Assembly: GCA_903970335.1 (NCBI GenBank)
Contig: CAJCII010000217.1
Location: 1 to 50,688, forward strand
DNA: 50,688 bases
Direction: 5' to 3'
From: Bacteroidota bacterium
GTDB taxonomy: Bacteria > Verrucomicrobiota > Verrucomicrobiia > Methylacidiphilales > UBA1321
Below are positions 1,226 to 48,064 of this stretch, piece by piece. The notes under the pieces were generated by a model. The model had not been told where the DNA came from and made no database searches. It saw only the letters and a program-made list of their open reading frames with translations. The stretch's first letter is position 1. Every line of letters starts with the position of its first letter. The translations under genes and the position numbers were made by a program.

Positions 1226-1318
1226 GCAAAAGTCAACACCCCAACCCCTTCCCTCCCAACGCCTTCCACTCAATGCCCAGTCTGACCTAATTTTACAAGC
1301 CATTTAGGCCGTTTAGGC
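1226..1318 (-). repeat. Dispersed ~93-bp repeat, copy 1 (after lhgO stop)
   Basis: Read on the minus strand, the copy begins around the lhgO stop codon with AAATGGC-type words, continues through AAAATTAGGTCAGACTG and GGGCATTGAGTGGAAGGCG, crosses a G-rich stretch and ends with GTTGACTTTTG. Related copies lie at 23385-23476 and 47973-48064. Copies 1 and 2 share an uninterrupted 25-base identity (1260-1284 and 23418-23442). No open reading frame or strong hairpin with a T-run is evident, so it does not look like a simple terminator. Confidence 0.85.
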
Positions 1319-2509
1319 CTCCTCCGCCATCCGCGCCACGATCTCCGCCCCAATGGCCAGGGACGCCGTCGCCGCCGGCGACGGGGCATTGACCACATGC
1401 AAGGCCCGGGCCTGCCGGATCAGGGAGAAGTCTTGGACCAGCTCCCCCGAGGGGTGCATCGCCTGCGCCCGCACCCCCGCCCCACCCGGACTCAGGTCCC
1501 CCAACCGCAGCTCCGGCACCAGCCTCTGCAGCGAGGCGCAGAACAGCCGCTTGCTCAGGGACCGCCGGACCTCGTCCCAGCACATCCGCCGGTGCCTCCC
1601 CATGAAGCGCCACAGCCCGGGATACCCGAGGGCATCCGCCAGGTCGACCAGGTTCAGGTCCAGCTTCCGGTACCCCTCCCGCGCGCAGGCCAGGACGGCA
1701 TTCGGCCCGGCCTCGACCCCGCCGTGGATCAGCCGGGTAAAGTGGACCCCGAGGAACGGAAAGTGGAGGTCCGGCACGGGATAGATCAGGTGCCGGACGA
1801 GGCCCTGCCGCTCCGGGCTCAACTGGTAGTACTCCCCACGAAACGGGACGATCTTCACCTCGGGCACCTCCCCGGCCAAAGCGGCCACCCGATCCGAGTG
1901 GAGGCCAGCGCAATTCACGAGGTAATCGGCGTCGACTTCCCCCGAGGTGGTGAGCAGCTTCCAGCCCTTGCCATCCGGCACGATTTGGCGGACGCGACTG
2001 AGGAAGCGGACCGTCCCGCCGAGCGCCTCGATTTCCGTGACCAACCGGGCACAGACCTGGGCGTAATCGACAATACCTTCCTCGGGAACATGGAGGGCTG
2101 CGACCCCGCCGACGTGCGGTTCGATCTCCAGCATTTCCTCCCGCCCGAGTAGGCGGACGCCGGTGAGCCCGTTGGCCTCGGCGCGCTCGCGGAGCTGGTG
2201 AAGTCGCTGCTGTTCGTCGGCGTCGGTGGCGACCACGAGCTTGCCGCAGATTTCATGGGCGATGCCGTGCTGCCGGCAGAAGTCGACCATCTGGCGAATG
2301 CCCGAGACGGCGAGGCGCGCCTTGAGCGATCCCGGCTTGTAGTAGAGGCCGGCGTGGAGGACGCCGCTGTTGTGGGTGCTTTGGTGGCGACCCGGCCCGG
2401 CTTCCTTTTCGAGGACAACGACGGTCGAGGCGGGTTGGGTTTGCAGAAGCCGATAGGCGGTGGCAAGCCCGACGATTCCCCCTCCGACGATGACGACCCG
2501 AGATGGCAT
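1313..2509 (-). CDS. lhgO: L-2-hydroxyglutarate oxidase (FAD-dependent)
   Basis: This 398-residue flavoprotein of the DAO/GlpD fold oxidises L-2-hydroxyglutarate to 2-oxoglutarate and passes electrons to oxygen or the membrane quinone pool. The N terminus MPSRVVIVGGGIVGLA gives the FAD-binding GxGxxG at residues 9-14. HNSGVLHAGLYY is the signature region of the LhgO/L2HGDH group, and the C-terminal segment NAPSPAATASLAIG is the usual flavin-contacting end. An in-frame ATG ten codons upstream (2539) exists, but the 2509 start places the Rossmann strand at the usual distance from the N terminus. Its 3' end runs into repeat copy 1. It is divergent from the sugar locus and probably unrelated to it. 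Confidence 0.9.
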   Translation of the reverse strand: MPSRVVIVGGGIVGLATAYRLLQTQPASTVVVLEKEAGPGRHQSTHNSGVLHAGLYYKPGSLKARLAVSGIRQMVDFCRQHGIAHEICGKLVVATDADEQQRLHQLRERAEANGLTGVRLLGREEMLEIEPHVGGVAALHVPEEGIVDYAQVCARLVTEIEALGGTVRFLSRVRQIVPDGKGWKLLTTSGEVDADYLVNCAGLHSDRVAALAGEVPEVKIVPFRGEYYQLSPERQGLVRHLIYPVPDLHFPFLGVHFTRLIHGGVEAGPNAVLACAREGYRKLDLNLVDLADALGYPGLWRFMGRHRRMCWDEVRRSLSKRLFCASLQRLVPELRLGDLSPGGAGVRAQAMHPSGELVQDFSLIRQARALHVVNAPSPAATASLAIGAEIVARMAEEA

Positions 2510-2610
2510 GTTCGGCACGACGTTAGGGGCGGGCGGCAAATGAGGTCAAGACTGTGCGTCAGACCGACGGCGACAGCGCAAGGCGAATGAATATCCTTGT
2601 TGGGGCAAAT

Positions 2611-2633
2611 GAAATTTGGTTCGATTAAATTTC
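2611..2633. promoter_or_regulatory. Inverted repeat between lhgO and the sugar operon
   Basis: GAAATTT (2611-2617) and AAATTTC (2627-2633) form a perfect seven-base inverted repeat around nine bases, in the AT-rich part of the 247-base region between the divergent lhgO and sugar-operon starts. It could be a regulator site or part of a promoter. No clear -35/-10 pair could be assigned, so the role is open. Confidence 0.3.
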
Positions 2634-2756
2634 GCCTTACCGGCGGACGGAAATGACCGACGATTTTTTTATTGCCCACTCCGATCGACCGATCGCCTGC
2701 CCGAAGCGGTACGATGGCTTCGGCCTTAACGCCGCGTGGAGGTCCCGGACCAGCTT

Positions 2757-3758
2757 ATGAAGGAACGCATTTTTGTCATCGGATCGAATGCCTATACGGC
2801 TGCGGCGTTTATCGATTATTGCCTGGAGCAAGGGCTGGAAATCCAGGGCTGCAGCCGCTCGGCGGAACTGGCGACGCCGTTTCTGCCTTACAAGTGGAAA
2901 AAAGAAACGGCCCCATCGGGCAGCTTTGAATTTACCCAACTGGACCTGAATCATCACACGAACGAAATCGTGAAGAACATCCGGGACTTCGGTCCGGAGA
3001 TGGTGGTGAATTTCGCGGCGCAGAGCATGGTGGCGGAAAGCTGGCTGCACCCAGACCATTGGTACGAGACGAATGTGGTGGCGAATGTGCGGCTGCACGA
3101 CGAACTGCGCAAGTGCGCGTTCCTCCGCAATTACGTGCATGTCTCCACGCCGGAAGTTTACGGGACATGCAGCGGCCTGGTGCCGGAAAACACACCAATG
3201 AACCCAAGCACGCCGTATGCGGCCTCGCGCGCCGCGTGCGAACTGCATCTCTCCACGTTCTGGAAGAGGTACCAGTTTCCGTACAGCCTGACGCGGGCGG
3301 CGAATGTCTACGGTCCCGGCCAGCAACTCTACCGGATCATCCCGCGGACGATTTTCTTTTCCAAGACCGGACGCAGATTACCGCTGCACGGTGGCGGACA
3401 CTCGGTGCGGTCCTTCATCCACGGACGGGATGTCGCGCGCGCGACACTGGCGCTGGCCCGGCAAAAGGGCGTGGGGCAGTGCTACCATCTTTCCACGAAG
3501 ACGCACATTTCGATCCGAGACCTGGTCGGTAAAATCTGTACGCGACTCGGCCTGGCGCTGGAAGACGTTGCCGAAATCACCGAGGACCGTCCGGGTAAGG
3601 ATGCGGCTTATCTTCTCGACAGCGCCAAGGCCAAGGCCGAGCTGGGATGGGAGCCCGAAATTTCGCTGGAGCAAGGCATCGAGGAAACGATCCGCTGGAT
3701 CGAGGCAAACCTCGACGAACTAAAACAACAACCGGCCGACTACCAACACAAGGCATGA
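2757..3758 (+). CDS. NAD(P)-dependent sugar-nucleotide epimerase/dehydratase (extended SDR)
   Basis: This 333-residue extended SDR resembles nucleotide-sugar 4,6-dehydratases and epimerases. VHVSTPEVYG (S130-G136), RAANVYGPGQQ and SVRSFIHGRDVA are typical substrate and cofactor elements. Two motifs are unusual: the N-terminal glycine-rich loop reads VIGSNAYTAAAF instead of GxxGxxG, and the catalytic YxxxK is Y154-A-A-S-R158. Related proteins recalled from LPS-type loci carry GSNSFSG and YxxSR, so these may be subfamily traits rather than decay. The ATG at 2757 follows a GGAGG-like site (from 2738) and is preferred over the GTG at 2736. It is the first gene of a tightly packed run, and its stop overlaps the next start (ATGA). 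The substrate is unknown. Confidence 0.85.
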   Translation: MKERIFVIGSNAYTAAAFIDYCLEQGLEIQGCSRSAELATPFLPYKWKKETAPSGSFEFTQLDLNHHTNEIVKNIRDFGPEMVVNFAAQSMVAESWLHPDHWYETNVVANVRLHDELRKCAFLRNYVHVSTPEVYGTCSGLVPENTPMNPSTPYAASRAACELHLSTFWKRYQFPYSLTRAANVYGPGQQLYRIIPRTIFFSKTGRRLPLHGGGHSVRSFIHGRDVARATLALARQKGVGQCYHLSTKTHISIRDLVGKICTRLGLALEDVAEITEDRPGKDAAYLLDSAKAKAELGWEPEISLEQGIEETIRWIEANLDELKQQPADYQHKA

Positions 3759-4825
3759 CCACCAACACCATCCAACCCCGTCGCATTCTCGTTACCGGAG
3801 GCTGCGGGTACGTCGGCAGCGCACTGCTGCCCCATTTGCTGCGTCTCGGACATCACGTGCGCGCCATCGATTTGATCCTTTACTCCGACGCGGGCGTGAA
3901 GAGCCTGAAGGCCAGCCCCGAATTCGAACAATGGCAGAACCGCTTCGAACTAGTCGTGGGCGACCTGCGACACGAGGAGACGATGCGGGAGGCGTTGCGC
4001 GGCTGCGATACGGTGATTCACTTGGCGGCAATTTCGAACGATCCGACCGGAGAGCTGGACGAGGCGCTCACGCGGCAGGTGAATTTCGACGCGATCGGGA
4101 TGATGCTGGCGCTGGCGAAGGAAGCCGGAGTGACCCGGTTCATCAATGCATCGTCGAGCAGCGTTTTCGGGATCAAGAATGTGCCGGACGTGACCGAGGA
4201 ACTGGAGGCGGAACCGCTGACGTTCTACTCGAAGTACAAGGCGCTTTCCGAGTGGCTGGTAGTTGCGGCGGCATCGCGCGAGTTTTGCGCGGTAAATATC
4301 CGTCCCGCGACGATCTGCGGTTATTCGCCCCGGCAGCGTTTCGACCTGACGGTGAACAAGCTGACGGCGGATGCGGTGCGCAAGGGGGTAATTACGGTGC
4401 ACGGCGGACAGCAGCGCCGACCGAATGTGGGCATGAGCGATGCGATCAATCTCTATGCGATATTGACCCAGACCGATCCCGCGCTGATCAACGGCCAGAC
4501 GTTCAACTTCGGCTTTGAGAACCACACGGTGCTGGCCATCGCGCAGCTCATCCAAGCTGAGTTGAAGGACCTGAACGTGAGCATCAAGGTCACGGACACG
4601 AACGACCACCGGGACTATCACATCTCCTCGGCCAAGCTGATCAAGTACCTCGGTTACAAGCCGGTCAGTTCCATCGCGATGGAGGTGGCCAATCTTCGCC
4701 GTGCGCTGGACGGCGGGCAGTTCCCCGACATCGATGCGAGCGAGCATTACAACATGAAGTGTATGAAACTGGCACGGGACAACGGCACCTATCGGTTTTT
4801 ATCGCGTCCACCCTCGCATGTTTAG
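3755..4825 (+). CDS. NAD(P)-dependent sugar epimerase/dehydratase (extended SDR)
   Basis: This 356-residue protein has the full set of extended-SDR motifs: ILVTGGCGYVGS with glycines 15, 18 and 21, ASSSSVFG at 132-139 and the catalytic Y158-S-K-Y-K162. IRPATICGYSPRQRFD and the later MSDAINLY lie in the substrate domain. It is probably a UDP-glucose epimerase-like or NDP-sugar dehydratase-like enzyme acting in the cytoplasm on the activated sugar made by this locus. The ATG overlaps the stop of the preceding SDR by four bases, which fixes the start and implies translational coupling. The exact reaction (4-epimerase, 4,6-dehydratase or reductase) cannot be told from sequence. Confidence 0.85.
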   Translation: MTTNTIQPRRILVTGGCGYVGSALLPHLLRLGHHVRAIDLILYSDAGVKSLKASPEFEQWQNRFELVVGDLRHEETMREALRGCDTVIHLAAISNDPTGELDEALTRQVNFDAIGMMLALAKEAGVTRFINASSSSVFGIKNVPDVTEELEAEPLTFYSKYKALSEWLVVAAASREFCAVNIRPATICGYSPRQRFDLTVNKLTADAVRKGVITVHGGQQRRPNVGMSDAINLYAILTQTDPALINGQTFNFGFENHTVLAIAQLIQAELKDLNVSIKVTDTNDHRDYHISSAKLIKYLGYKPVSSIAMEVANLRRALDGGQFPDIDASEHYNMKCMKLARDNGTYRFLSRPPSHV

Positions 4826-6356
4826 CCACAAGATCATCGAGTTCGGCAAGATCGGCGCGGTCCTCGATCAGGTCCGCGCGGAGGGGAAAAAGATTGTCCA
4901 GTGTCATGGGACGTTCGATCTCATCCATCCGGGCCACATCTATCACCTGGAGGAAGCGAAGGGCTACGGCGACATTTTGGTGGTGACCCTGACGGCGGAG
5001 AAATTCGTCAACAAGGGACCGGGACGGCCCTACTTCAACGACAAGCTGCGGGCGCGCAGCCTGGCCGCGCTGGGTTGCGTCGATTATGTCGTGGTGGTGC
5101 CCTATTCGGCAGCGGTGGAGGCGATCACAACGGTACGTCCGAATATTTACTGCAAGGGCCGCGAATACGCGGACGCAGGCAACGATGTCACGGGCAATAT
5201 CCGCGACGATGTCGCTGCGGTGGAGAAAATCGGCGGCGAGACCCACTACCTCGGCTCGGTCGTTTTCAGCTCGAGCAAGCTGATCAACAGCCACTTCGAC
5301 CATGTACCGGTCGAGGTCAAACAGATTTGCCAGGAACTGGCGAAGAATCACCCGCCGGAAAAAATCCGGGATGCGGTGGAAAATCTTTCCAACCTACGGG
5401 TGCTGGTGGTGGGGGACATTATCTTCGATCGATACAACTACGTTCGGGTGCAGGGGCTGACTTCCAAGAACCGCATTCTTTCCGGACGCCACCTTTACGA
5501 AGACACACAGCCGGGCGGAGCGCTGGCGGTCTTCAATCACATCAAGCAATTCACGCCGCACATCCGGCTGGTGAGCCTGTTGGGAGAGGAATCCTGGAGC
5601 CTGGAGCTTTTACGGCAGTCGGTGAGCGCGGAGCAGGACCTGGTGGTGAAGGACGCCGAGTTCACGACCATCATCAAGCAACGCTTCGTGGAATCGGCGG
5701 GAGTGGACAAGGAACTGAGCAAATTGTTTTCGGTGAATTTCATCGACGCCGAGCCGCCGAGCCTGCGTTTGCAGGAAAAGCTGATCGAGCATGTGGTCGG
5801 TGCGATGGCGGAAGTGGATTTGGTGGTGGTGGCCGATTTCGGCCACGGCGTGATGTCGGACCTGTTGCGGGAATGCGTGCAGAACAAGGCCCCGTTCATG
5901 GCCCTGAACTGCCAGACGAACAGCAACAACCACGGCTTCAACATCATCTCCCACCAGTACCAGCGGGCGGACTGCTTTTCGCTGGACGAACAGGAACTGC
6001 TGCTTTCGAGCGCGCGCAAGCACATCGACTATACGAAGGAATTGGAGGGCTTGCGCACGCGGCTGAAGGCATCCTCGGCCTGGCTGACCCGCGGCGGAGT
6101 CGAGACGATCGGTCTGGCCGAAGGAAGCAAGCCGTTTGTGTGCCTGCCGCTGGAGTCGGCGATTAAAGACACGGTGGGCGCGGGCGATGCGTTTTTTTCC
6201 GTGGCGGCGTTGGCGGCAGCCCATAAGCTACCGATCGACCTGACCACGTTCCTCGGGCAATTGGCCGGGGCGCAGGCGGTGAAAATCATAGGCAATTCGC
6301 AACCGATCTCGAAGGCAACCTTGTTGAAGAGCGCAATGTCCCTGACTAATTTCTAA
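4818..6356 (+). CDS. Bifunctional nucleotidylyltransferase / PfkB sugar kinase (HldE-like, reversed order)
   Basis: This 512-residue fusion has an N-terminal cytidylyltransferase-type domain (about 20-165) with CHGTFDLIHPGH containing the HxGH motif H37-H40, then FSSSKLIN as the counterpart of the usual ISTTKI loop. The C-terminal half (about 190-512) is a PfkB/ribokinase-type kinase with VVGDIIFDRYNYV at its start, VADFGHGVMS in the middle and the catalytic GAGD at 454-457. E. coli HldE, which makes ADP-heptose precursors, has the kinase first and the nucleotidylyltransferase second, so the order here is reversed. The protein probably phosphorylates a sugar or sugar phosphate and attaches a nucleotide. 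It overlaps the upstream SDR gene by eight bases. Substrate and nucleotide (ADP or CDP) are unknown. Confidence 0.85.
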   Translation: MFSHKIIEFGKIGAVLDQVRAEGKKIVQCHGTFDLIHPGHIYHLEEAKGYGDILVVTLTAEKFVNKGPGRPYFNDKLRARSLAALGCVDYVVVVPYSAAVEAITTVRPNIYCKGREYADAGNDVTGNIRDDVAAVEKIGGETHYLGSVVFSSSKLINSHFDHVPVEVKQICQELAKNHPPEKIRDAVENLSNLRVLVVGDIIFDRYNYVRVQGLTSKNRILSGRHLYEDTQPGGALAVFNHIKQFTPHIRLVSLLGEESWSLELLRQSVSAEQDLVVKDAEFTTIIKQRFVESAGVDKELSKLFSVNFIDAEPPSLRLQEKLIEHVVGAMAEVDLVVVADFGHGVMSDLLRECVQNKAPFMALNCQTNSNNHGFNIISHQYQRADCFSLDEQELLLSSARKHIDYTKELEGLRTRLKASSAWLTRGGVETIGLAEGSKPFVCLPLESAIKDTVGAGDAFFSVAALAAAHKLPIDLTTFLGQLAGAQAVKIIGNSQPISKATLLKSAMSLTNF

Positions 6357-6362
6357 GAGACC

Positions 6363-7400
6363 ATGAAAACCAAGGCTGCCATCCTGGTGGAACAGAAGAA
6401 GCCGCTCGTCATCGACGAGGTGGAGATTCCGCCGCTCGGGTACGGCCAGGTCCTGGTGCAGGTGAAGGTCAGCCGAATTTGCGGATCGCAGATCGGAGAA
6501 ATCGACGGAGCGAAAGGCCCGGACAAATTCCTGCCGCATTTGCTGGGACATGAGGGCGGGGGAATCGTCGTCGAGACGGGGCCGGAAGTTAGCCGGGTGC
6601 GCGCGGGAGACCATGTGGTGCTCCATTGGCGGGAAGCGAAGGGAATTCAATCGCGGCCACCGAAATACGACTGGCGCGGGAAAACCGTCAATGCCGGGTA
6701 CATCACGACGTTCAACGACTATGCGGTCGTCTCGGAAAACCGGCTGACGCCCATTCCAGCCGAGGTCGATTTCGAAGTCGCGGCATTGCTCGCAGACACC
6801 CTGACGACGGGGTTTGGGTTGATCAACAACGATGCGCACCTGAAGCTGGGAGAATCGGTGGTGGTAATCGGCTGCGGGGGTATCGGCATGGGCGTGCTGC
6901 TGGGCGCGAAACTGGCCGGGGCGTGCCCGCTCATCGGGGTCGATCTTTTTCCGCACAAGCTCGACCTGGCGCTTTCCATTGGGGCGACGCATACGATCAA
7001 CTCGAAGGAAGTCGATTTCGTGGCAGCGGCGCGGGAAATTTTGGGCGGGCCCTTTGCCGACGTGGTGATCGACGGGACGGGAAATCCCGCCGTGCTGGAG
7101 AAGGCGTTGGCGTTGACCGCGCCGCAGGGGAAATGCGTGGGCTTCGGCGTGATGCCGTACGATCGCAAACTGACGCTGAACACGTTGCCGCTGCATCTGG
7201 GCAAGACGCTGACCGGGTCGCACGGCGGATCGAGTCGGCCCGACGAGGACATTCCCCGCTACCTGCGGATGATGAAACAGAACCAGTTCCATTTGAAAAA
7301 TTTTGTGTCGCATCGCCTGCCGCTGGAGGAGATCAATGGCGCGGTGGAGAAAATGCGTTCCGGCGAAGTAGTCCACGCGATGATTCATTTTTCGTCATGA
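6363..7400 (+). CDS. Zinc-type medium-chain alcohol dehydrogenase, atypical ligands
   Basis: This 345-residue MDR-family dehydrogenase has the catalytic-zinc residues C40 (RICGSQ) and H63-E64 (LLGHEGGG) and a nucleotide-binding VVIGCGGIGMG at 167-177, with D194 suggesting NAD preference. The structural-zinc lobe with four cysteines is missing (HWREAKGIQSRPPKYDWRGK in its place). The third catalytic ligand, normally cysteine, appears as D145 in LLADTLTTGFG. It probably oxidises or reduces a sugar hydroxyl or keto group in the cluster pathway. The start ATG lies six bases after the kinase-fusion stop, and the gene overlaps the transketolase gene by four bases (ATGA). Substrate unknown. Confidence 0.85.
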   Translation: MKTKAAILVEQKKPLVIDEVEIPPLGYGQVLVQVKVSRICGSQIGEIDGAKGPDKFLPHLLGHEGGGIVVETGPEVSRVRAGDHVVLHWREAKGIQSRPPKYDWRGKTVNAGYITTFNDYAVVSENRLTPIPAEVDFEVAALLADTLTTGFGLINNDAHLKLGESVVVIGCGGIGMGVLLGAKLAGACPLIGVDLFPHKLDLALSIGATHTINSKEVDFVAAAREILGGPFADVVIDGTGNPAVLEKALALTAPQGKCVGFGVMPYDRKLTLNTLPLHLGKTLTGSHGGSSRPDEDIPRYLRMMKQNQFHLKNFVSHRLPLEEINGAVEKMRSGEVVHAMIHFSS

Positions 7401-8263
7401 GCACGCTGCCTTCACTTGCGGAATTGCAGGGCATCTCGGCCGAGTTGCGGGGCCAGGTGATCAAGATGTCGCACCAGGCGGGCACGCCCCACCTGGGTTC
7501 TTCCCTTTCCTGCATCGACCTCCTGACGGCGGCGTATTGGACGGCATTGCGGATCGACCCGGAGAAGCCGCACGATCCGAATCGCGACCGTTTTATCCTG
7601 AGCAAGGGCCATGCGGCCCCGGCACTTTACTCGGTGCTGGCCAAGCGAGGTTTTTTCAGTCCGGACTGGCTGGACACCTTTGCCACGCATGGCGCGGAGC
7701 TGGCCGAGCAGCCGAGTCCAAATTGCGCTCCGGGCGTGGAATTGGCGACCGGTTCGCTGGGACACGGATTGCCGGTGGCGCTGGGACTGGCCTTGGCCGC
7801 GAAGATTCAACCGCGGGACTACCGGGTCTTGGTGGTGCTCAGCGATGGCGAGTGCAACGAGGGTTCCGTTTGGGAAGCGGCCCTGCTCGCCCCGGCGCTG
7901 AAGCTGAATCATTTGGCGATCATGGTCGATTTCAACAAATGGCAGGCAACAGGGCGGAGCGAGGAAGTGACGAGCCTGACGCCGTTGCGGGCGAAGTGGG
8001 AGGCCTTCGGCTGGCATGCTGTCGAAGTGGACGGGCACGATCTCGCCGCACTGACGGAGGCGTTGCGCGAGGTGCCGCACCCGAGTGGAAAACCGCTGGC
8101 GATCATCGCCCATACGATCAAAGGCAAAGGTGTCTCCTTCATGGAGGACGACAACAACTGGCACTATCGCATTCCGAAGCGGGACGAGGTGAACAAGGCC
8201 TTTGCCGAACTGGGACTGCCCGCGCCGCAGTTGGCCGCCGCCAAGAGTGGGAGCGCGTCATGA
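7397..8263 (+). CDS. Transketolase, N-terminal (TPP-binding) subunit
   Basis: This 288-residue protein equals the N-terminal pyrophosphate-binding domain of transketolase. It has PHLGSSLSCIDLL, LSKGHAAPALY (H72), ATGSLGHGLPVALG, and the ThDP/Mg motif with D150-G151-E152 and N154 (SDGECNEG). A complete transketolase needs the PYR domain, encoded by the next gene with a four-base overlap, so the enzyme is a split two-subunit form. Its place inside a sugar-nucleotide operon rather than with pentose-phosphate genes suggests that it moves a two-carbon ketol unit onto or off a dedicated sugar precursor. That role is inference. Confidence 0.92.
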   Translation: MSTLPSLAELQGISAELRGQVIKMSHQAGTPHLGSSLSCIDLLTAAYWTALRIDPEKPHDPNRDRFILSKGHAAPALYSVLAKRGFFSPDWLDTFATHGAELAEQPSPNCAPGVELATGSLGHGLPVALGLALAAKIQPRDYRVLVVLSDGECNEGSVWEAALLAPALKLNHLAIMVDFNKWQATGRSEEVTSLTPLRAKWEAFGWHAVEVDGHDLAALTEALREVPHPSGKPLAIIAHTIKGKGVSFMEDDNNWHYRIPKRDEVNKAFAELGLPAPQLAAAKSGSAS

Positions 8264-9180: not shown

Positions 9181-9189
9181 GACCCGCTT

Positions 9190-10897: not shown

Positions 10898-10906
10898 CGA
10901 TCCCCG

Positions 10907-13135: not shown

Positions 13136-13156
13136 ACCTCAACTTTTCTATTTCCC

Positions 13157-13819: not shown

Positions 13820-13844
13820 TCCGGTTGTCCCTGAGCCAAGAGAT

Positions 13845-21663: not shown

Positions 21664-22038
21664 TCAGCAGCACGCCACCGGCAACGGCCCTGCCGCCACC
21701 AGCTTCTTCTTCCGCGCATCGACCGCCAGATTCAGCCCTTCCAAGCTTCGTGCGCCCAGCAGCAGCATGTCCCCTTTCTCGGCAAAAACCACCTCGTCCA
21801 CCGTAAACGCCTTCTCCACCCGCACGATGGCAAAGCCCACGCTCCGGGTAATCACCTGCCCGTTCGCCATCGTAAACGCCAGGTCCTTCTTTTCCCGTTT
21901 GATCCCGAGTTTTTCCAAGGTGGCGGCGGCCACCCACGTGTACTCGCTTCCCGTATCGACGAGTAGCTTGGGAATCGTCGCGCCATGCTCGCGGTCGGCA
22001 ATATTCTCGATTCTGGCTCCGATGTAAAAGGTGCCCAT
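21664..22038 (-). CDS. Retropepsin-like (clan AA) aspartic protease
   Basis: This 124-residue protein contains the single-domain aspartic protease signature KLLVDTGSEYTWV with catalytic D28-T29-G30, and the later hydrophobic-glycine element DMLLLGARSLEGL, which corresponds to the second half of the fold. Such small bacterial proteins dimerise to form one active site, as in retroviral protease. No signal peptide is visible. Function and target in bacteria are mostly unknown. It stands alone between an SNF2 remnant and a broken GH43 gene, yet it appears intact. Confidence 0.8.
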   Translation of the reverse strand: MGTFYIGARIENIADREHGATIPKLLVDTGSEYTWVAAATLEKLGIKREKKDLAFTMANGQVITRSVGFAIVRVEKAFTVDEVVFAEKGDMLLLGARSLEGLNLAVDARKKKLVAAGPLPVACC

Positions 22039-22094
22039 GCCTCGACCCTAGCACTCTCACTTTTCCTGCGAAATCCTTTTATCAATGGCTCGCT

Positions 22095-23351
22095 CTATTT
22101 CGCGCCGCCGGGGGAAGAACCATCCGTCGTCGTCGCCTCGGACGAACCCTTGCGCCAGTGCGTCGGCGAACCGGGTTGCAGGATGAAGGCCGGTTGCTCG
22201 TCCGCGATAAAGATTTTCCCGTCCGGCGCGAAATCGATCCGCACAATCCCCGGCTTTTCCCGCCACGGCGACTGGTCGTCGTTGCCGAAGTAGGTGCAGT
22301 ACCAGTTGCCCTGCGCGTCGTGAAAATAATTTCCGCCGCCCCCGCACGGCACCGCTTCGTGCCACTGCGTGTAGGGGCCGGTCAGCGTGTCCGAAATCGC
22401 CGCCACGCTGCTGTAGCGCCCGTGATAAAACGCCGCCGCCGTCAGGTAATACTTCCCGTTGTGCTTGAACATCGAAACGCCTTCCATCCCGACTTGACCC
22501 TCCCGCCACGTCGCATCGGGCGGGTGCTCTACTTGCAGCTTCTGCGCCGGGCCCGCGAACCCGCTTTAGTCCGGCTTCAGCAACCGGATCGAACCGCCGC
22601 CCCCGTTCGTGAAATAGACCTTCCCGTCGTCGTCCTGGAAAAGCGTCGCGTCGATTCCCCCACTCGTCGTCGGATCGTTGGCCAGCGGATTCGCATAAGG
22701 CCCCTCCGGCTTGCCCGTGGTGCTCTTGAGAATGAACGTTCCCCCGCCATGCCCGCCGCTCATGCACAGCGCCAGCAGGACGTCCTTGCCGATAAAGTGG
22801 ATTTCCGGCGCCCAGACGTAGCGCAGTTTCTTCTGGAACGTGCCGTCCTTGTCCACGCTCCAGACCAGGCCCAGGTAGTCCCATTTCTTCAGGTCGGCGG
22901 AACGCCACAACTCCACCCCGTCGTTCCGGTCCCAGATGTTGTCGCCCGACGATCCGGTCATATAATACATCCCGTCCGGCGCCAGCTTGATGATCGTGTC
23001 GCGCAGGTGCAATTCCCAGAGCGGGCGCAGCGGCGGCAACAGCCCATCGCGCACGGATGTCCCTTTCGCCTTGTCCCCCAGCGGCAGCCAGCCCGGCTTC
23101 AGCGGGGCGTTCCCCTTGTACATCACCCCGTCGCGCCCTGTCCGGTACCCGCCGTAACCGTCTCCCTCCACCGGCGCGCCCGGCCCGCTGATACCCGAGT
23201 AGACATCCGGCGGCGATGAAAACGGCGGGGAACTGCGGTCCGCGTGCGGGTCGCGCGCAGGTGAGATGGACGTAGGTGTTTGCGCAACAACGCTCAGCGT
23301 CGAAAGAATCGCCATCGCCGGAAACACAACGCAGGAGAATTCGGTCTTCAT
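22095..23351 (-). pseudogene. GH43-family glycoside hydrolase with in-frame stop
   Basis: One continuous frame of 419 codons encodes a secreted family 43 glycosidase (arabinanase/xylosidase type), interrupted only by a TAA at 22566-22568 (codon 262). The N terminus MKTEFSCVVFPAMAILSTLS is a signal peptide. The three catalytic acids are recognisable: D118 in LHLRDTIIKL (base), D234 in GGIDATLF (pKa modulator) and E290 in GMEGVSMF (acid), the last lying after the stop. The 261-residue product made up to the stop would lack the general acid and should be inactive. No frameshift is present, so this is either a very recent pseudogene or a sequencing error. Repeat copy 2 lies just upstream. Confidence 0.85.
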
Positions 23352-23364: not shown

Positions 23365-23394
23365 AGTATTCGTCGCCCGTCTCCAAAAAGTCAA
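23365..23394 (-). promoter_or_regulatory. Possible promoter for the GH43 gene inside repeat copy 2
   Basis: On the minus strand TTGACT (23394-23389) is followed after 18 bases by AATACT (23370-23365), a moderate match to a sigma-70 promoter, ending 13 bases before the GH43 start codon. The TTGACT is the conserved tail of the dispersed repeat, so the repeat could donate a -35 box. The other two copies lack an obvious -10 at the right distance. Confidence 0.3.
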
Positions 23395-23476
23395 CCCTGC
23401 AACCTCCTCCCCTCCAGCGCCTTCCACTCAATGCCCAGTCTGCCCTAATTTAATAGGCCATTTAAGCCATTTTCGC
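23385..23476 (-). repeat. Dispersed ~93-bp repeat, copy 2 (after purF stop)
   Basis: The copy begins within ten bases after the purF stop (23481). It carries AAATGGC twice, AAATTAGGGCAGACTG, GGGCATTGAGTGGAAGGCG, a G-rich stretch and the terminal GTTGACTTTTT. It has the same orientation relative to the upstream gene as copies 1 and 3. Downstream genes are degraded (GH43 with a stop, SNF2 remnant). Confidence 0.85.
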
Positions 23477-23480
23477 CCGC

Positions 23481-36037: not shown

Positions 36038-36063
36038 TCGGGCCAATCCGAACATTGCCCGAT
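36037..36063 (+). terminator. Weak hairpin after the 529-residue gene
   Basis: ATCGGGC (36037-36043) pairs with GCCCGAT (36057-36063) directly at the stop codon of the preceding gene. Only a short, mixed T content follows (CCTTGCCGATTCTT), so termination would be weak. Confidence 0.3.
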
Positions 36064-36172
36064 CCTTGCCGATTCTTAACGAATTATTGGATGTGACAAA
36101 AATTTACGCCCACTTAGTCTGTGGTTTGAACTCGCTCGAAGAGACCGGCCACCCCATCTGCGTCGACCGCCC

Positions 36173-37510: not shown

Positions 37511-37514
37511 CCCC

Positions 37515-38540
<1,026 letters not shown>

Positions 38541-38552
38541 ACCGTTACCGCC

Positions 38553-41332: not shown

Positions 41333-42780
41333 ACTTCATCACCCTCTTTTTTTCCGACGACCGCAAGCTCGACGATTGGCTCAGCCCGATTCTGGTCAAG
41401 GAGTTGCGACAGGGCATGCGCGCGCGCGTCTTCGTCATCTCCTTTTTGCTTCTCCAGCTCTTTTTGATCGTTCTCGTCCTGGGCAACGTCGCCGCGCAGG
41501 ACGACCGCAGCACCCTCGAATTCCAGAATAATTTCTTCTGGGTCATCCTCGGCTTTGCCCTCCTCGGCCTGATGCCCCTGCGCGGTCTTGTCGCCATCTC
41601 CCTGGAAGTAAAGAACCACACCATGGAAACCATCATGCTGACGCGGCTCACCGCCTGGCGGGTCGTCTTCGGAAAATGGAGCGCCCTCTTCGCCCAGAGC
41701 CTGCTTCTCGTCTCGGCGGTACTGCCCTACGTCGTCCTCCGCTATTTCATCGGCGGAGACGATGTGGTTTCCGATTTCGAGTGGATCCTTTTTATGCTCT
41801 GGATGTCCGGGTTGTTGATAGCTGCCTGCATCGGAGTTTCGGCCCTGGGCAATTTCGTGATTCGGATCGTCATCCTGGTCTGCATCGCAATTCTGACCCT
41901 TACCGCGATTGGAAATTACGAATCCATCGGCGCCGGTCTCGATAAAGCCTGGGAAATCGTGGCCTGGCTTGTCGTCTTCGGCTTTTTTATTTCCGCCATT
42001 CTCTTCGAACTCACCGCTACCGGCATCGCTCCGGCCTCGGAAAACCATGCCCTTCGCCTGCGCCTTCTCGCCCTCGCTTTTTTACTCGTCGCCTGGGGCC
42101 TGGCTAGGCTCGCCCAAAGCGATTTCACCCCCGGGATTTGCATTCCCGCGATTGTCCTCGTCGCCGTCTGCTACTTCGATTTGGCCGAAAAACCGCGTCT
42201 CCTCCCCAGAATGGTCCGGTCGATGGCGCAGAGGGGATGGCCGGGCAAAATCGCCGCGATTTTTCTCCTGCCCGGCTGGCCCAGCGCCCTGCTTTTTTCC
42301 ATCGTTGTCGTTCCGTTCGCGGTGTGGCTTTATTGCGCCACGGCCAAACTCGACCCCGATCCGGGATGGCGCCTGCCGCTCTTCTCCACCTTCGGCTCCA
42401 TTTTTACCCCGATCGTCATCTGCCATTTTTTCTGGCCCAGGAATAAACAGGTCCTGCTCATGGTCTTCATCTATAACCTCATCCTTTTCGGACTTGGTTC
42501 GATTCTCGGCGGGTTTGCCGACCTGACCCACACCCCGATCAATAAAGTCCTCGCTTTCCTGCCCGGCCTTCCCGTCTTCTTTACCGGACTCGCCTCCGAT
42601 TCGACCAAGGATTACACCCCCTTGTGCCTCGTCGGCAATGCCATCACGCTCGTCATTCTCCTCTTCGCGCTGCTCGTGGGCAGTCGCCGGTATTTCCGCG
42701 AATTACTCGCCCTCTTGCGCTCGGCCCCCGACGTAAAACCCTCGCCGGACCAGCCTGTACCGGAAGCGGAGATCAAATGA
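41329..42780 (+). CDS. ABC transporter permease
   Basis: This 483-residue polytopic protein has about twelve hydrophobic segments spread along its length, for example ARVFVISFLLLQLFLIVLVLGNV (beginning near residue 31). ELRQGMRARVF just before the first helix matches the cytoplasmic start of ABC-2 type permeases, which contact the ATPase. It should form the membrane part of the exporter with the preceding ATPase. Its substrate is unknown. The stop overlaps the DUF58 gene start. Confidence 0.8.
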   Translation: MNFITLFFSDDRKLDDWLSPILVKELRQGMRARVFVISFLLLQLFLIVLVLGNVAAQDDRSTLEFQNNFFWVILGFALLGLMPLRGLVAISLEVKNHTMETIMLTRLTAWRVVFGKWSALFAQSLLLVSAVLPYVVLRYFIGGDDVVSDFEWILFMLWMSGLLIAACIGVSALGNFVIRIVILVCIAILTLTAIGNYESIGAGLDKAWEIVAWLVVFGFFISAILFELTATGIAPASENHALRLRLLALAFLLVAWGLARLAQSDFTPGICIPAIVLVAVCYFDLAEKPRLLPRMVRSMAQRGWPGKIAAIFLLPGWPSALLFSIVVVPFAVWLYCATAKLDPDPGWRLPLFSTFGSIFTPIVICHFFWPRNKQVLLMVFIYNLILFGLGSILGGFADLTHTPINKVLAFLPGLPVFFTGLASDSTKDYTPLCLVGNAITLVILLFALLVGSRRYFRELLALLRSAPDVKPSPDQPVPEAEIK

Positions 42781-43673
42781 ATGCTCTTCTCGCCGAAGAC
42801 AACCCCGCCACCCGGAAACGGGAAATTGCGCGACTGGCCGAACAAGTATGCCTGCCCTTCCGCTCCCGGGCCTGGCGCGGTTCGTCCGGTGCGTGGCAGG
42901 GACTCAACCAAGGCAGCTCGATCGATTTTCAGGACCATCGCGCCTATGCGCCCGGCGACGATCCCCGCCATCTCGATTGGGCCGCCTACGCCCGTACCAA
43001 TCACTACACGATGAAGCTCTTCCGCGAGGAGGTCAGCCCCCGTCTCGACATTGCCCTCGATGTCAGCGGGTCCATGGCCCTGACCAGACCCAAGGAGGCA
43101 CGCAGCCTCGACTTGCTCCATCTCGTCCTGAGCCTCGCGCTCCACGACGGCATCGGCCTCCGCCTCTACGCCGCCCATTCCGCCGGTCAGTGGCGTCGCC
43201 TTGACACCCAAGCCGCCCTCGCGCTGCAAGCCCTGCCCTTGTTTAATTTCACGGCCACCGACGACCAGGCCGCCCGCCTTCCCCTCACGGAAATCCCCTG
43301 GCGCGCCGGATCGCTCCGCATCCTCATTTCGGACCTCCTCGTCCCGCAACCTCCCGAACGGGAACTCGCCGGCTTGAGCGCGGACCATGGTCGCGTCGTT
43401 ATCCTCGCCCCCTACCTCCAGGCCGAGGCCGAACCCGACTGGAACGGCAATCTCGAACTCCACGATTGTGAAACGCGGCAAGTCCGCCAGCAGCGGGTCG
43501 AACCCTATCTTCTCTCCCGCTACCGGAAAAGCTATCGGCGTCATTTCGATCTCTGGCAGGAAGAGGCGCGACGGCGGGGCGTCCCGCTGGCCCGGATTTC
43601 CAGTGAACTTTCGCTCAGCGTGGCCTTGCGTCGGCAGGCGCTTCCCGCCGGCGCATTCGAAATACGACATTGA
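42777..43673 (+). CDS. DUF58-family protein
   Basis: This 298-residue protein has the DUF58 block: SSIDFQDHRAYAPGDDPRH, LDWAAYARTNH and KLFREE, followed by a VWA-like core DIALDVSGSMAL. DUF58 proteins are found next to MoxR ATPases and VWA proteins. Their function is unproven, but they are thought to be chaperone partners or metal-binding adaptors. The ATG at 42777 is fixed by overlap with the preceding stop. No signal peptide is seen, so it is probably cytoplasmic. Confidence 0.9.
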   Translation: MNALLAEDNPATRKREIARLAEQVCLPFRSRAWRGSSGAWQGLNQGSSIDFQDHRAYAPGDDPRHLDWAAYARTNHYTMKLFREEVSPRLDIALDVSGSMALTRPKEARSLDLLHLVLSLALHDGIGLRLYAAHSAGQWRRLDTQAALALQALPLFNFTATDDQAARLPLTEIPWRAGSLRILISDLLVPQPPERELAGLSADHGRVVILAPYLQAEAEPDWNGNLELHDCETRQVRQQRVEPYLLSRYRKSYRRHFDLWQEEARRRGVPLARISSELSLSVALRRQALPAGAFEIRH

Positions 43674-45436
43674 ACGGCCTGCCCTTTGTCTTCGCCAACC
43701 CCTGGGGTGCGCTGGCTTTGCTCGGCCTGCCTGCGGTCATTGCCATTCATTGCCTGCAACAAAAGTCCCGCACTCTCCGGATCAGCACCCTTTTCCTGCT
43801 CGATCGTCTCTCCCTCGATAGCCAACAGGGCAGTCGCTTCACCTGGATGCGCCAGTCCCTCGCCTTCTGGCTCCAGATTCTCTGTGTTCTTATCCTCACC
43901 TGGCTTCTGCTCGAACCCCACTGGCTCCGCGCCGATGCCGTCCAGCGCGTCGTCCTCGTCCTGGACAGCTCGATCTCCATGCGCGCCTTTACCGACGACC
44001 TCGTCGCCCGGACCTCGCCTCGTCTCCGCGCCCTCGCCGCGCTCACTCCGCGCACCTACTGGACCCTGCTGGAAACCGATCCCTCCCGCCCCACGCTCTA
44101 TGAAGGACTGGACCTGATCGCCCTCGAGGAAAAACTTCACGCCTGGCGTCCCTCGATGCCCGGGCACGACCCCACCCACGCGCTCGAACTGGCCCGCTCC
44201 GTCGCTCCCCGGGACGCCCTCGTGATTTTCGTCACCGACCGACCTCACGACGTGCCCAGCGGAATCGATCTCCTCGCCATCGGCGAACCCATCGAAAACT
44301 GCGGTTTGGTCGGCTCCCGCGTCCTTGGCACCGGACCCGATCTCGAATGGCAGGTCATGGTGCAAAATTACGGGCAAAAAACCGCCCACCGTTCCTGGTG
44401 GATCGAACTCGCCGGACAAAAAACCGACCCGCAAACCATCGACCTCGATCCGGGTCACTCCAAAATCCTGCGCGGAAAATTCCCTCCCGGTCTGGACCGA
44501 CTGGAGGTTTGTCTGAATGCCGACCGCTTTACCGTGGACGACCGCATGGCCATCGTTCGTCCCCAGCTCAAACGCCTCACCGTCTCTTCGCAGGGCGACG
44601 ACTCCACTGCGGACATCTTCACTCGCCTGATGCAAACACTTCCCGCCCTCGATCCCGCCGTCTCCGGCCAACCCGCCGATGTCGCCTTCATCGGCACCAG
44701 TTCCCAGATACCCATTCCGGACAACACCCACCCCGCCGTCGTTCTCTTCGCCAACACCATCGTTAACAATCTCTTCGTCGGCGAACCCTTCGCGGCCGAT
44801 GAAGACCCGTTGAACCAGGACCTCAGTTGGCAGGGCCTCGTTATGCAACCGGGAGATGCCGTCACCTTGGCCCCGCAAGACCATGTGCTGCTCTGGAAGG
44901 ACCGCACTCCCCTCATCTATTTTCGCTCCATTGCCGGGAACCGTCGCCAGCTTGTTTTCAACTTCGATTTTCCCACCTCGAACGCCACCAAGCTCCCCGC
45001 CTTTGTTCTCCTCATCCGTCGCTACCTGGAATCGATTCGGACGGACAAAATTGTGCCGGAAATCCGTAACGCGGAATTGAACGAACCGTTACTCCTCGCT
45101 GCCGATCCCACCGGTGGGCCCGTCGTCCGGCACGATCCCGACGGAACCGAAACGACCTTTTCCCCGCGTATTCGGGTGACCCTGAACGCTCCCAACCTAC
45201 CCGGCTTTTTCTCTATCACTCAAGGCGGACAAACGCTGCTCTCGGGTGCGGCCCAGTTCGCCGATGCGCGTGAATCCGATTTCCGCACCGCCGCCACCGT
45301 CGATACCCTCACCGACCATCGCGCCCGGCTCATGCAACTGCGTACCAGTTCCGAGGCCCTGACCCCGCTCTGGCTCCTGCTCATCGGTGTCTTACTCCTG
45401 TCCTACTGGGCCGCCACCAACCCACGACTAAAATGA
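43670..45436 (+). CDS. BatA-like membrane protein with VWA domain
   Basis: This 588-residue protein starts at TTG, overlapping the DUF58 stop. Two N-terminal membrane segments (about 12-26 and 64-82) surround a basic loop with ISTLFLLDRL, the signature of the aerotolerance BatA N-terminal domain. A VWA domain follows with VVLVLDSSISMRA, the DxSxS metal-binding site. A membrane segment lies near the C terminus (about 565-582, LWLLLIGVLLLSYW). It is probably anchored at both ends with most of the protein outside, and its ligand is unknown. Confidence 0.85.
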   Translation: MNGLPFVFANPWGALALLGLPAVIAIHCLQQKSRTLRISTLFLLDRLSLDSQQGSRFTWMRQSLAFWLQILCVLILTWLLLEPHWLRADAVQRVVLVLDSSISMRAFTDDLVARTSPRLRALAALTPRTYWTLLETDPSRPTLYEGLDLIALEEKLHAWRPSMPGHDPTHALELARSVAPRDALVIFVTDRPHDVPSGIDLLAIGEPIENCGLVGSRVLGTGPDLEWQVMVQNYGQKTAHRSWWIELAGQKTDPQTIDLDPGHSKILRGKFPPGLDRLEVCLNADRFTVDDRMAIVRPQLKRLTVSSQGDDSTADIFTRLMQTLPALDPAVSGQPADVAFIGTSSQIPIPDNTHPAVVLFANTIVNNLFVGEPFAADEDPLNQDLSWQGLVMQPGDAVTLAPQDHVLLWKDRTPLIYFRSIAGNRRQLVFNFDFPTSNATKLPAFVLLIRRYLESIRTDKIVPEIRNAELNEPLLLAADPTGGPVVRHDPDGTETTFSPRIRVTLNAPNLPGFFSITQGGQTLLSGAAQFADARESDFRTAATVDTLTDHRARLMQLRTSSEALTPLWLLLIGVLLLSYWAATNPRLK

Positions 45437-47949
45437 GCCTGAACGCCCCCGAGTGGCTTCTGTTGGTGCCACTGCTCCTCTTTCTCGGCTGGTATGTTCC
45501 GACCATTCAATGGTTGCGGCCCCTGCGCCTGCTCAGCCTCGGCCTGCTCGTCTTCGCCCTCTGCGATCCCCAAATTTCGCGCTTCAGTCCGGGTCTCGAT
45601 GTCTGGGTCCTTGTCGATCAATCCTCTTCCGCGGCCGATGCCCTCGCCGCCCATGAAACCGAAATCGAGGACCTGCTCGCTCGTTCCAAAGGCAGTTCGG
45701 ACAACCTCCATTTTCTCGATTTCGCGGAAGACGTCGAGGACCGGGAAACCGAGTCCGACCGCGTCTACGAAGGGGACCGCGATTCCACCCGCATGGCCAA
45801 TGCCATCGAGGTAGCGCTGGCCCGGATGAAGCCCGACCGCGCCGCGCGGCTGCTCGTCCTGACCGACGGCTATTCCACGGAACCTCTCACTGGCCTCGAG
45901 TTCCGCTTGCTCTCCCAGGAAGTCCCGCTCGATTACCGGCTCCTCGAATCGCCCAATCCCCAGGACTACCAGGTCGATTTCCTCCACACCGCCGAACGGG
46001 TCCGCCCCGGTGAACCTTTTCTCATCGAATTTCAAGTGAGCGGCCAGCCCGATGCCATCGTGCCCTATCAAATCCTCCGCGATGGCCAGGGCATCGGTAG
46101 CGGAACCGTCGAAGTAAAGGGCGGTACGGGATCGCTTCGTTTCACCGATCGCGTCTCCTCACCCGGGGCACACCATTATCAAGTCCAGATCACCCCCGAA
46201 CACGATGCCATTCCCGGCAATAACCTCGGCCAAAGCTGGACCGAAGTCGTCTCCGGTCCCCGCGTCCTCCTCGTCACCGATTATCCCGACGATCCGCTCA
46301 TCGCTACGCTCCGCCAGGAAAAAATCGATGTGGATGTCGAAACCAAACCCCGGTCGCTTGTCCCCGGTCGCCTCAGCGGGGCCAAGGCCGTCATCCTCAA
46401 CAACGTCCCCTCGTACGAAATCCCTCCCGATTTTCTCTCCCTCATCGATTTCTTCGTCCGGGAACAAGGTGGCGGCTTGCTCATGATCGGCGGAAAATAC
46501 AGCTTCGGCGCGGGCGGTTACTCCCAGTCCACCCTCGACGATCTCCTCCCCGTCTCGATGGAACTTCGCACCGAGCACCGCAAACTGGCCGTCGCCATGG
46601 CCATCGTCATGGACCGCTCCGGCAGCATGTCGATCGCGGTCGCCAACGGCCTGACCAAAATGGACATGGCCGACGACGGGGCCGCGCGCGCCGTCGAACT
46701 GCTCGGCCCGCACGACGCGGTCTCGGTCATCGCGGTCGATACCGAGCCTCACGTCATCGTGCCGCTCACGGAAGTCGGCGATGCCGCCGGGGAAATGACC
46801 GGTCCCATTCGGCACATCGCCAGCATGGGCGGCGGCATCTACATCGACGTCGCCCTCCGCGCCGGTTGGAAGCAACTAAAGGATTCAACCGCCGGTCAGC
46901 GACACCTGCTCCTCTTCGCAGATGCGAGCGATTCGGAGGAACCCGGCGACTACAAATCGCAGGTCGACGACATGGTCAAGGCCGGCGTCACCATCAGCAC
47001 CATCGGCATGGGCTCCGCCAGCGACAAGGACGCGGGGCTGCTGGAGGACATCGCCAAACGCGGCAACGGTCGGTGCTACTTCGGCTCCAACCCGGAGGAA
47101 TTGCCCACCATCTTTGCGCAGGAAACCGTCGCCATCGCCCGCTCCGCTTTCCTGAAGGACCCGGTCGATGTCCAACCCGCCTCCGGCTGGGCCGAAATCG
47201 CCGCGCAACCGATCTCCTGGCTTCCGACTGTCGACGGCTACAACCTCAGTTATCTCCGGCCCAATGCCACCGCCGCCCTCTTCTCGAAGGACGAATACCA
47301 GGCGCCGCTCGTCGCCTTCTGGCAACGCGGGCTTGGTCGCACCGCCGCCGTTTCCTTTCCGCTCGGCGGTGATTTTTCCCAGCGCGCCCGAAGCTGGAGC
47401 GAGTACGGTAATTTCAGCCGCACCCTCACCCGCTGGCTTCTCGGCTCGGAAACACCACCCGGACTCGGCCTGCGCACCCGCCTCGTCGGAACGGAACTTC
47501 AGGTCAGCCTCCTTTACGACCAAGCGTGGGAGGAGCGGATCTCCCAACATCCGCCCCTGCTCCAGATCGCCATCCAAAACAATAACGGCACCTCGGTGAC
47601 CAGTTCCCCGCTCTGGGAACGGATCGCCCCCGGGCGCTACGATACCACGGTGCACCTCCCTGCGACCCGCTACCTGCGCGGTGCCGCCCAAGTGGGGCCC
47701 TACACGATCCCCTTCGGCCCGATTGTCGCGGGGGCGAATCCCGAGTGGACTCGCGACCGGCATCGGCTGGAGGAACTCGAGGCGCTATCCTTGGCCAGCG
47801 GCGGCACCCAGCGCCTGGACATGTCCTCCATCTGGAGCGCTCCCCGGGCGACGGGCACGACGCCTCTCCGCCGGGATGTCCTGATCGCTCTGTTCTTCGT
47901 CCTGCTGGCGGAGTTCCTGCAGACCCGGCTGGGGTGGAGGGTCCGGTAG
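45433..47949 (+). CDS. Large membrane protein with VWA and amidotransferase-like domains
   Basis: This 838-residue protein has N-terminal membrane helices (about 8-22 and 28-45) followed by a first VWA-like region with WVLVDQSSSAADAL. A glutamine-amidotransferase-like region (about 275-365: RVLLVTDYPDDP, FVREQGGGLLMIGGKYSFG) precedes a full VWA domain with VMDRSGSMSIAV (DxSxS) and LLLFADASDS. A C-terminal membrane segment lies near 812-830. Amidotransferase-like VWA proteins of this type are common in MoxR operons. It is the last gene, and repeat copy 3 begins shortly after its stop. Confidence 0.85.
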   Translation: MSLNAPEWLLLVPLLLFLGWYVPTIQWLRPLRLLSLGLLVFALCDPQISRFSPGLDVWVLVDQSSSAADALAAHETEIEDLLARSKGSSDNLHFLDFAEDVEDRETESDRVYEGDRDSTRMANAIEVALARMKPDRAARLLVLTDGYSTEPLTGLEFRLLSQEVPLDYRLLESPNPQDYQVDFLHTAERVRPGEPFLIEFQVSGQPDAIVPYQILRDGQGIGSGTVEVKGGTGSLRFTDRVSSPGAHHYQVQITPEHDAIPGNNLGQSWTEVVSGPRVLLVTDYPDDPLIATLRQEKIDVDVETKPRSLVPGRLSGAKAVILNNVPSYEIPPDFLSLIDFFVREQGGGLLMIGGKYSFGAGGYSQSTLDDLLPVSMELRTEHRKLAVAMAIVMDRSGSMSIAVANGLTKMDMADDGAARAVELLGPHDAVSVIAVDTEPHVIVPLTEVGDAAGEMTGPIRHIASMGGGIYIDVALRAGWKQLKDSTAGQRHLLLFADASDSEEPGDYKSQVDDMVKAGVTISTIGMGSASDKDAGLLEDIAKRGNGRCYFGSNPEELPTIFAQETVAIARSAFLKDPVDVQPASGWAEIAAQPISWLPTVDGYNLSYLRPNATAALFSKDEYQAPLVAFWQRGLGRTAAVSFPLGGDFSQRARSWSEYGNFSRTLTRWLLGSETPPGLGLRTRLVGTELQVSLLYDQAWEERISQHPPLLQIAIQNNNGTSVTSSPLWERIAPGRYDTTVHLPATRYLRGAAQVGPYTIPFGPIVAGANPEWTRDRHRLEELEALSLASGGTQRLDMSSIWSAPRATGTTPLRRDVLIALFFVLLAEFLQTRLGWRVR

Positions 47950-47972
47950 GCTGGAGGGGGCGCGAAGGGGTT

Positions 47973-48064
47973 TTAAATGGCGTAAATGGCTTATAAAATT
48001 AGGTCAGAGTGGCGATTTAGTGGAAGGCGCTGGGGCAGAGGCGGTTGGAGTGTTGACTTTTGGG
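47973..48064 (+). repeat. Dispersed ~93-bp repeat, copy 3 (after VWA operon)
   Basis: The copy begins about 24 bases after the stop of the last operon gene. It reads TTTAAATGGCGTAAATGGC, ATAAAATTAGGTCAGAGTGG, AGTGGAAGGCGCTGG, a G-rich stretch, then GTTGACTTTTGGG. The orientation relative to the upstream gene matches copies 1 and 2. The plus strand here aligns with the minus strand of the other two. Confidence 0.85.

What the first reader, a model, noticed from the sequence alone, without database searches (positions are those of the whole stretch)
1226..48064. Three copies of a ~93-bp repeat, each right after the stop codon of an intact gene and before accessory DNA
Copies at 1226-1318, 23385-23476 and 47973-48064 share the order AAATGGC words, AAATTAGG(T/G)CAGA, AGTGGAAGGCG, a G-rich stretch and GTTGACTTTT. 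Copies 1 and 2 have a 25-base exact match. All three follow a stop codon by about 0-25 bases (lhgO, purF, the VWA gene) in the same direction as that gene. Each is followed by degraded or mobile-type genes (VapBC plus RHS remnant, broken GH43 plus SNF2 remnant, orphan fragment plus IS-cut hsdM). It is not a typical intrinsic terminator. Options are a small non-autonomous mobile element, a 3'-end regulatory RNA, or an insertion hotspot.
Basis: partly seen in the sequence, partly recalled or inferred. Interest (0 to 1): 0.78.

Follow-up and report, generated by a model that had tools for sequence, protein, structure and literature searches.

The report
Stop-codon-hugging palindromic repeat family
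The three repeats belong to a family of roughly 75 short, partly palindromic DNA elements that spread through the genome of one uncultured soil Verrucomicrobium, mostly landing right behind the stop codons of intact genes and, in the comparisons made, absent from its relatives; it is a new variety of a known kind of small bacterial repeat.

Summary
In the 2.88-Mb Verrucomicrobiota MAG that holds the window, a sequence model finds about 75 loci: about 24-31 are the full 90-bp form (all three window copies), and the rest share only a ~50-bp palindromic core. None of 68 copies checked lies inside a called gene. In 24 of 31 full-form copies the left end is close behind a same-sense stop codon; only one copy is arranged the other way round. 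The core 19-mer is absent from 84,980 GTDB species genomes, and 59 relatives have no full-form hit. Orthologues of 13 genes that carry a copy have homologous C-termini but no element in congeners. At convergent gene pairs with conserved neighbours, congeners have short or overlapping spacers where this genome has a 60-80-bp element. The best-folding copies (z about -9) sit between convergent genes; the full form folds weakly, with no compensatory changes. It is not an intrinsic terminator, not in Rfam, carries no GTAG/CGTC tag, and is not linked to the genome's RAYT transposases. Most likely: a lineage-specific, non-autonomous, REP-like mobile element biased to gene 3' ends. Its mobilising enzyme is unknown. 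'Followed by accessory DNA' is only partly general.

The parts
1222..1321 (-). Copy 1 of the 90-bp full-form element (strict match 1227-1314; palindromic core 1261-1315). Its left end overlaps the TAA stop of the lhgO-like gene.
   Evidence: BLAST 84%; R1 90 bits; R2 51.8 bits
1313..2539 (-). Host gene of copy 1: FAD-dependent oxidoreductase (lhgO-like)
   Evidence: Pfam DAO 1.7e-60; stop at distance -2
23382..23479 (-). Copy 2 of the full-form element (strict match 23383-23472; core 23419-23475), 8 nt after the purF stop
   Evidence: BLAST 83%; R1 87.3 bits; R2 57.8 bits
23481..25043 (-). Host gene of copy 2: purF. Congener orthologues end with the same C-terminus and have no element.
   Evidence: Pfam GATase_7 3e-19; orthologues L131, L132
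47967..48066 (+). Copy 3 of the full-form element (strict match 47975-48064; core 47972-48028), 25 nt after the stop of the VWA gene
   Evidence: Query copy; R1 85.9 bits; R2 48.6 bits
45433..47949 (+). Host gene of copy 3: VWA-domain protein
   Evidence: Pfam VWA 1.9e-14

Best explanation
The repeats are copies of a lineage-specific family of small non-autonomous elements, REP-like or MITE-like in behaviour. The core is an imperfect palindrome of about 50 bp (consensus TGGCCTAAATGGCCTATAAATTTAGGTCAGACTGGGCA; best palindromic members GGCCAGTC[C/T]GACCTATA..TAGGTCAGACTGGCC). A subfamily of ~24-31 copies, including the three window copies, carries a conserved 3' extension (AGTGGAAGGCG..G-rich..GTTGACTTTTGGGG) and a weaker hairpin. 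Copies multiplied in this lineage and landed preferentially directly behind stop codons, oriented with the upstream gene; sometimes the left end (TTAAAATGG or CTGAAAATGG) itself supplies the stop. Shown: family, copy number, position and orientation bias, absence from orthologous sites, folding gradient. Inferred: that spread was by transposition-like copying, by an enzyme supplied in trans (not identified), and that the post-stop hairpin modulates the upstream transcript or its translation, as reported for E. coli REPs within 15 nt of a stop codon (PMC12306157, citing earlier work).
For: 38 BLAST and 84 model hits in one genome; core model ~75 loci. Zero full-form hits in 59 relatives, 7 of them congeners; core 19-mer absent from 84,980 GTDB genomes and IMG/VR; core model: only weak hits in congeners G005 and G003. 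No copy inside a called gene. Left end within -30..+60 nt of a same-sense stop in 24/31 full and 22/37 core copies; left-only versus right-only 23:1 (sign test 1.5e-6) and 15:5 (0.02). Congener orthologues of 13 genes (names mostly by eye: nuoH, argF, pyrC, pyrB, acs, dinG, pfkA, rluD, manA, ilvD, obg, uvrB, purF) keep homologous C-termini without the element. Sites with both neighbours conserved: C89 carbonic-anhydrase-like pair, 68-bp spacer made of the element versus overlapping stops in G006; pfkA pair, 79 versus ~25 bp in G006; C202 pair, 114 versus ~27 bp between stops in G004. Hairpin z-scores -9.6, -9.3, -7.4 for palindromic members; stronger folds in convergent spacers (p = 3e-4, n = 7).
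Against: No transposase is linked to the family: the two Y1_Tnp (RAYT-type) matches in this genome have different palindromes and none of the core nearby. No terminal inverted repeats or target-site duplication could be defined, because flanks in congeners are too diverged. Insertion is inferred between species, not within one. The stop-codon bias could partly be selection removing insertions elsewhere. Gene ends were called with a home-made codon-usage script.
Confidence: 0.78

Rival explanations
1. The repeat is a functional transcription-end module (unusual terminator or 3'-UTR stabiliser) that this lineage copied to many gene ends and keeps by selection. Symmetric copies would serve convergent genes, asymmetric copies single genes.
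For: Position and orientation at stop codons. The most stable hairpins lie in convergent spacers and make up nearly the whole spacer. Upstream genes are intact and mostly housekeeping.
Against: Congeners do without it at every orthologous gene end examined. No U-tract: 2 of 65 copies are terminator-like. The full form has weak hairpins and 0 of 10 predicted pairs with two-sided changes. Some copies lie in divergent spacers (C204).
Confidence: 0.15
2. The full-form repeat marks the left junction of, or a hotspot for, inserted accessory DNA and rearrangement.
For: At nuoH, argF, acs, obg and pyrC, congeners agree with each other on the downstream neighbour but this genome differs immediately after the element; the nuo and arg gene blocks are collinear up to the element. 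At acs about 1.7 kb of DNA lies between the element and the neighbour found next to acs in G004. In the window each copy is followed by degraded or mobile-type genes.
Against: pfkA, C202, C89 and C204 core copies keep their neighbours. rluD and ilvD copies are followed by apparently ordinary genes (by eye). Rearrangements also occur without the element. No second copy or attachment-site pair was found at far junctions.
Confidence: 0.2
3. A REP family mobilised by a RAYT (GTAG/CGTC superfamilies).
For: Intergenic palindromes, many copies. GTAG REPs often supply the TAG stop of flanking ORFs (PMC3733652), and TAG is over-represented before copies at distance 5 or more (20/27 against 25/104, Fisher 5e-6). 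Y1_Tnp genes are present.
Against: No GTAG or CGTC tag in the consensus. Palindromes near the RAYT-type genes do not match the core. TAG lies at variable distance from the palindrome.
Confidence: 0.06

Closest known systems
REP sequences (GTAG/CGTC superfamilies; E. coli REPs)
   Same: Small intergenic palindromes in many copies. Many E. coli REPs lie 1-20 nt from an ORF's 3' end (PMC12306157); some GTAG REPs supply the stop codon (PMC3733652).
   Different: No GTAG/CGTC tag, no associated RAYT, longer (50-90 bp), with an oriented non-palindromic 3' extension in the main subfamily.
Bacterial MITE-like small mobile repeats (such as the enterobacterial RU elements of 103-168 bp, PMC2759123)
   Same: Short repeats of about 100 bp in multiple intergenic regions, without autonomous coding capacity.
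   Different: No terminal inverted repeats or target duplication found; strong position and orientation bias to stop codons.
MIRUs of Mycobacterium (from memory, not tested)
   Same: Tens of bp, inserted at gene ends in the direction of the upstream gene and overlapping its stop codon.
   Different: MIRUs carry small ORFs and sit between operon genes; here every full copy has stops in four of six frames and 17-18 of 24 copies in the other two, and most copies are not tight operon spacers.

Membership tests
[quoted passage not shown]
   Consensus of 24 full and 33 core copies has no such tag
REP (GTAG/CGTC superfamily) | Multicopy intergenic palindrome | tested here: met
   ~75 loci, none inside called genes; palindromic members z -7 to -9.6; full-form members fold weakly
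REP (GTAG superfamily) | RAYT gene flanked by copies of the repeat | tested here: not met
   Y1_Tnp loci at C148 and C36 lack the core; genome 84% complete, so a missing RAYT cannot be excluded
MITE | Terminal inverted repeats | tested here: not met
   Left end AAATGGCC, right end GTTGACTTTTGGGG; not inverted repeats of each other
MITE | Target-site duplication | not testable with these tools
   No close strain with an alignable empty site; congener spacers too diverged
Intrinsic terminator | GC-rich hairpin followed by U-tract | tested here: not met
   2 of 65 copies; 0 near copy 3
Known structured RNA (Rfam) | Match at gathering score | tested here: not met
   0 in the window; only sub-threshold hits in six other loci

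The most novel reading that the evidence does not exclude
A mobile element whose insertion is actively guided to the ends of translated genes (for example through the stop-codon region, terminating ribosomes, R-loops or 3'-end hairpins), giving a selfish element that lands safely behind intact genes and can supply the host gene's stop codon; the TAG excess and sharp -2..+10 nt spacing would be traces of that targeting.
Probability: 0.2. Interest if true: 0.75.

Novelty: new variant of a known kind. Interest (0 to 1): 0.5.

Why it matters
The family is clearly bounded, restricted to one lineage as far as searched, and has measurable orientation, spacing and folding rules. It offers a test of how non-autonomous palindromic repeats spread without a RAYT, whether they target gene ends or are only tolerated there, and whether a hairpin a few bases behind the stop codon changes expression of housekeeping genes, so far discussed mainly for E. 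coli REPs. It also warns that such repeats can alter C-termini and break up assemblies.

Tried and rejected
Integron attC: no GTTRRRY/RYYYAAC core sites, and copies are dispersed singly (by inspection). Protein-coding or in-frame element: no frame open in all copies. RAYT-REP. Structured RNA of the full form: no two-sided pairs; Rfam empty, and the sub-threshold mir-4436, SSRC10 and Ysr141 hits taken as chance. Core-hairpin covariation was only modest (covariation 0.134 against 0.106 in shuffles, reached by 1 of 500). Replication-strand or GC-skew orientation: no consistent skew. Literature searches for the same repeat in Verrucomicrobia found nothing matching.

Full report
OBSERVATION. The three copies exist as described: 1227-1314 on the minus strand, 23383-23472 on the minus strand, 47975-48064 on the plus strand. 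Copies 1 and 2 share CGCCTTCCACTCAATGCCCAGTCTG exactly. The 19-mer GGGCATTGAGTGGAAGGCG (up to 3 mismatches) occurs only at the three copies, with none expected by chance. [quoted passage not shown]

EXTENT. The window is contig C217 of a 2.88-Mb, 84% complete MAG. The closest named PurF relatives (88% identity) are Verrucomicrobia / Ca. Methylacidiphilales MAGs. BLAST with copy 3 finds 38 places. A sequence model of 24 full copies (R1) finds 84 hits, many matching only the first ~55 positions. A second model built on that shared core (R2) finds about 75 loci. Conservation is sharp from AAATGGCC to GTTGACTTTTGGGG and fades on both sides. The family therefore has a core of about 50 bp and a subfamily of ~24-31 copies with a 40-bp oriented extension; the window copies are of the latter.

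ANATOMY. In the most symmetric core-only members the sequence is visibly palindromic: C137 reads GGCCAGTCCGACCTATATTTTTAGGTCAGACTGGCC, folding at -34.8 kcal/mol with its flanks, z = -9.6. Other members replace the left arm by GGCCTAAATGGCCTA, which still pairs partly with the same right arm. Blocks of GG recur every 9 bp on both sides. A two-helix structure is paired in 87% of cells, against 17-56% when slid by 1-3 columns, but covariation is only modestly above shuffles. The full-form subfamily has mismatches in the inner stem, weak folds (z about -1 to -4) and no two-sided changes. RNA structure is therefore not what conserves the full form. It has no frame open in all copies, no Rfam match and no intrinsic-terminator signature (2 of 65 copies).

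POSITION. With gene ends called by a codon-usage script, no copy lies inside a called gene. The left end lies within -30..+60 nt of a same-sense stop in 24 of 31 full-form copies; only one full-form copy has the reverse arrangement alone (sign test 1.5e-6). For core-only copies the counts are 22 of 37, 15 left-only, 5 right-only and 7 between convergent stops. Distances cluster at -2..0, where the element's TTAAAATGG or CTGAAAATGG supplies or overlaps the stop, and at 5-10 nt. Copies in convergent spacers have the most stable hairpins (mean -22.6 against -14.3 kcal/mol, p = 3e-4, n = 7), and there the element makes up nearly the whole spacer. At distances of 5 or more the stop is TAG in 20 of 27 genes against 25 of 104 other genes (Fisher 5e-6); this is unexplained.

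LINEAGE RESTRICTION AND INSERTION. The core 19-mer is absent from 84,980 GTDB species genomes and from IMG/VR (records very near the window's own genome may be left out there). R1 finds nothing in 59 relatives, 7 of them congeners. R2 finds only weak hits in congeners G005 and G003; G005 carries a different repeat with a similar style of core, 8 copies at 95-98% identity. For 13 genes that carry a copy here, congener orthologues end with homologous C-termini and are followed by unrelated DNA without the element. Three convergent pairs keep both neighbours: at C89 the congener's stops overlap while this genome has 68 bp consisting of the element; at pfkA the spacer is 79 bp here and about 25 bp in G006 (longer in G003 and G004); at C202 the spacer is 114 bp against about 27 bp in G004. 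This is the signature of short insertions behind intact genes. Most gene names are by eye from the translated sequence; Pfam was run only on window proteins.

ACCESSORY DNA. In the window, each copy is followed by PIN/VapB genes, a GH43 split over two frames, or an HSDR_N fragment. Elsewhere the picture is mixed. At nuoH, argF, acs, obg and pyrC the congeners agree among themselves on the downstream neighbour and this genome differs directly after the element; at acs about 1.7 kb separates the element from the expected neighbour. Other copies keep their neighbours or are followed by apparently ordinary genes. In one control block the five junctions without an element are conserved in G004 and G006, but no unbiased count was possible. 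I treat the breakpoint link as suggestive.

MECHANISM. The best-supported reading is a small, non-autonomous, REP-like mobile family whose copies persist, or insert, directly behind stop codons. Sequence evidence shows multiplicity, lineage restriction, orientation and site bias, and filled versus short sites. The copying enzyme is not identified: two Y1_Tnp matches exist, but nearby palindromes differ. Reported E. coli data say that REPs fewer than 16 nt from a stop codon can lower translation (PMC12306157, citing earlier work), and some GTAG REPs supply TAG stops (PMC3733652). A similar effect on the upstream genes here is inference, most plausible for strongly palindromic members and least for the window copies.

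VERDICT. It works like REP/MITE repeats but fails the tested markers of GTAG/CGTC REPs (tag, RAYT) and of MITEs (terminal inverted repeats), so it is filed as a new variant of a known kind.

Noticed in passing
L231, L233, L235, L237-L241 (congener G005): A different repeat of more than 150 bp, 8 copies 95-98% identical, with palindromic core TTATCTGGCCTAAAAGGCTTATAATTTTAGGCCAGATAAGCC and the same 9-bp spacing style; looks recently mobile.
   Followed up: partly
copies with stop-to-element distance 5 nt or more: Stop codon TAG is strongly over-represented before copies (20/27 against 25/104 of other genes); cause unknown.
   Followed up: partly
L296, acs downstream region: About 1.7 kb between the acs element and a toxin/antitoxin-like pair (YoeB-like by eye) that directly follows acs in G004; contains a long foreign-looking ORF and other hairpin repeats (GTTCCCAAGTGCAACTTGGGAACGAGG).
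   Followed up: partly
C85:33409, C190:7660, C1:9103 (L023, L015, L009): A second conserved block, roughly TGGAGGGnGCGGCTCC..GCG.CGGGGCTGA, lies directly upstream of three copies; possibly another repeat family.
   Followed up: no
L215 (C148) and L223 (C36): RAYT-type Y1_Tnp genes with their own nearby palindromes (CCTAGGGCAACGCCCTAGG; CCGTCGCACGGAGTGCGACGG), unrelated to this element.
   Followed up: partly
L299, ~150 bp downstream of the manA copy: A group II intron reverse-transcriptase-like ORF (by eye) starts just behind the element.
   Followed up: no
window 21664-23351: A GH43 gene split over two frames, next to a retroviral-type aspartyl protease domain protein (PF13975).
   Followed up: no
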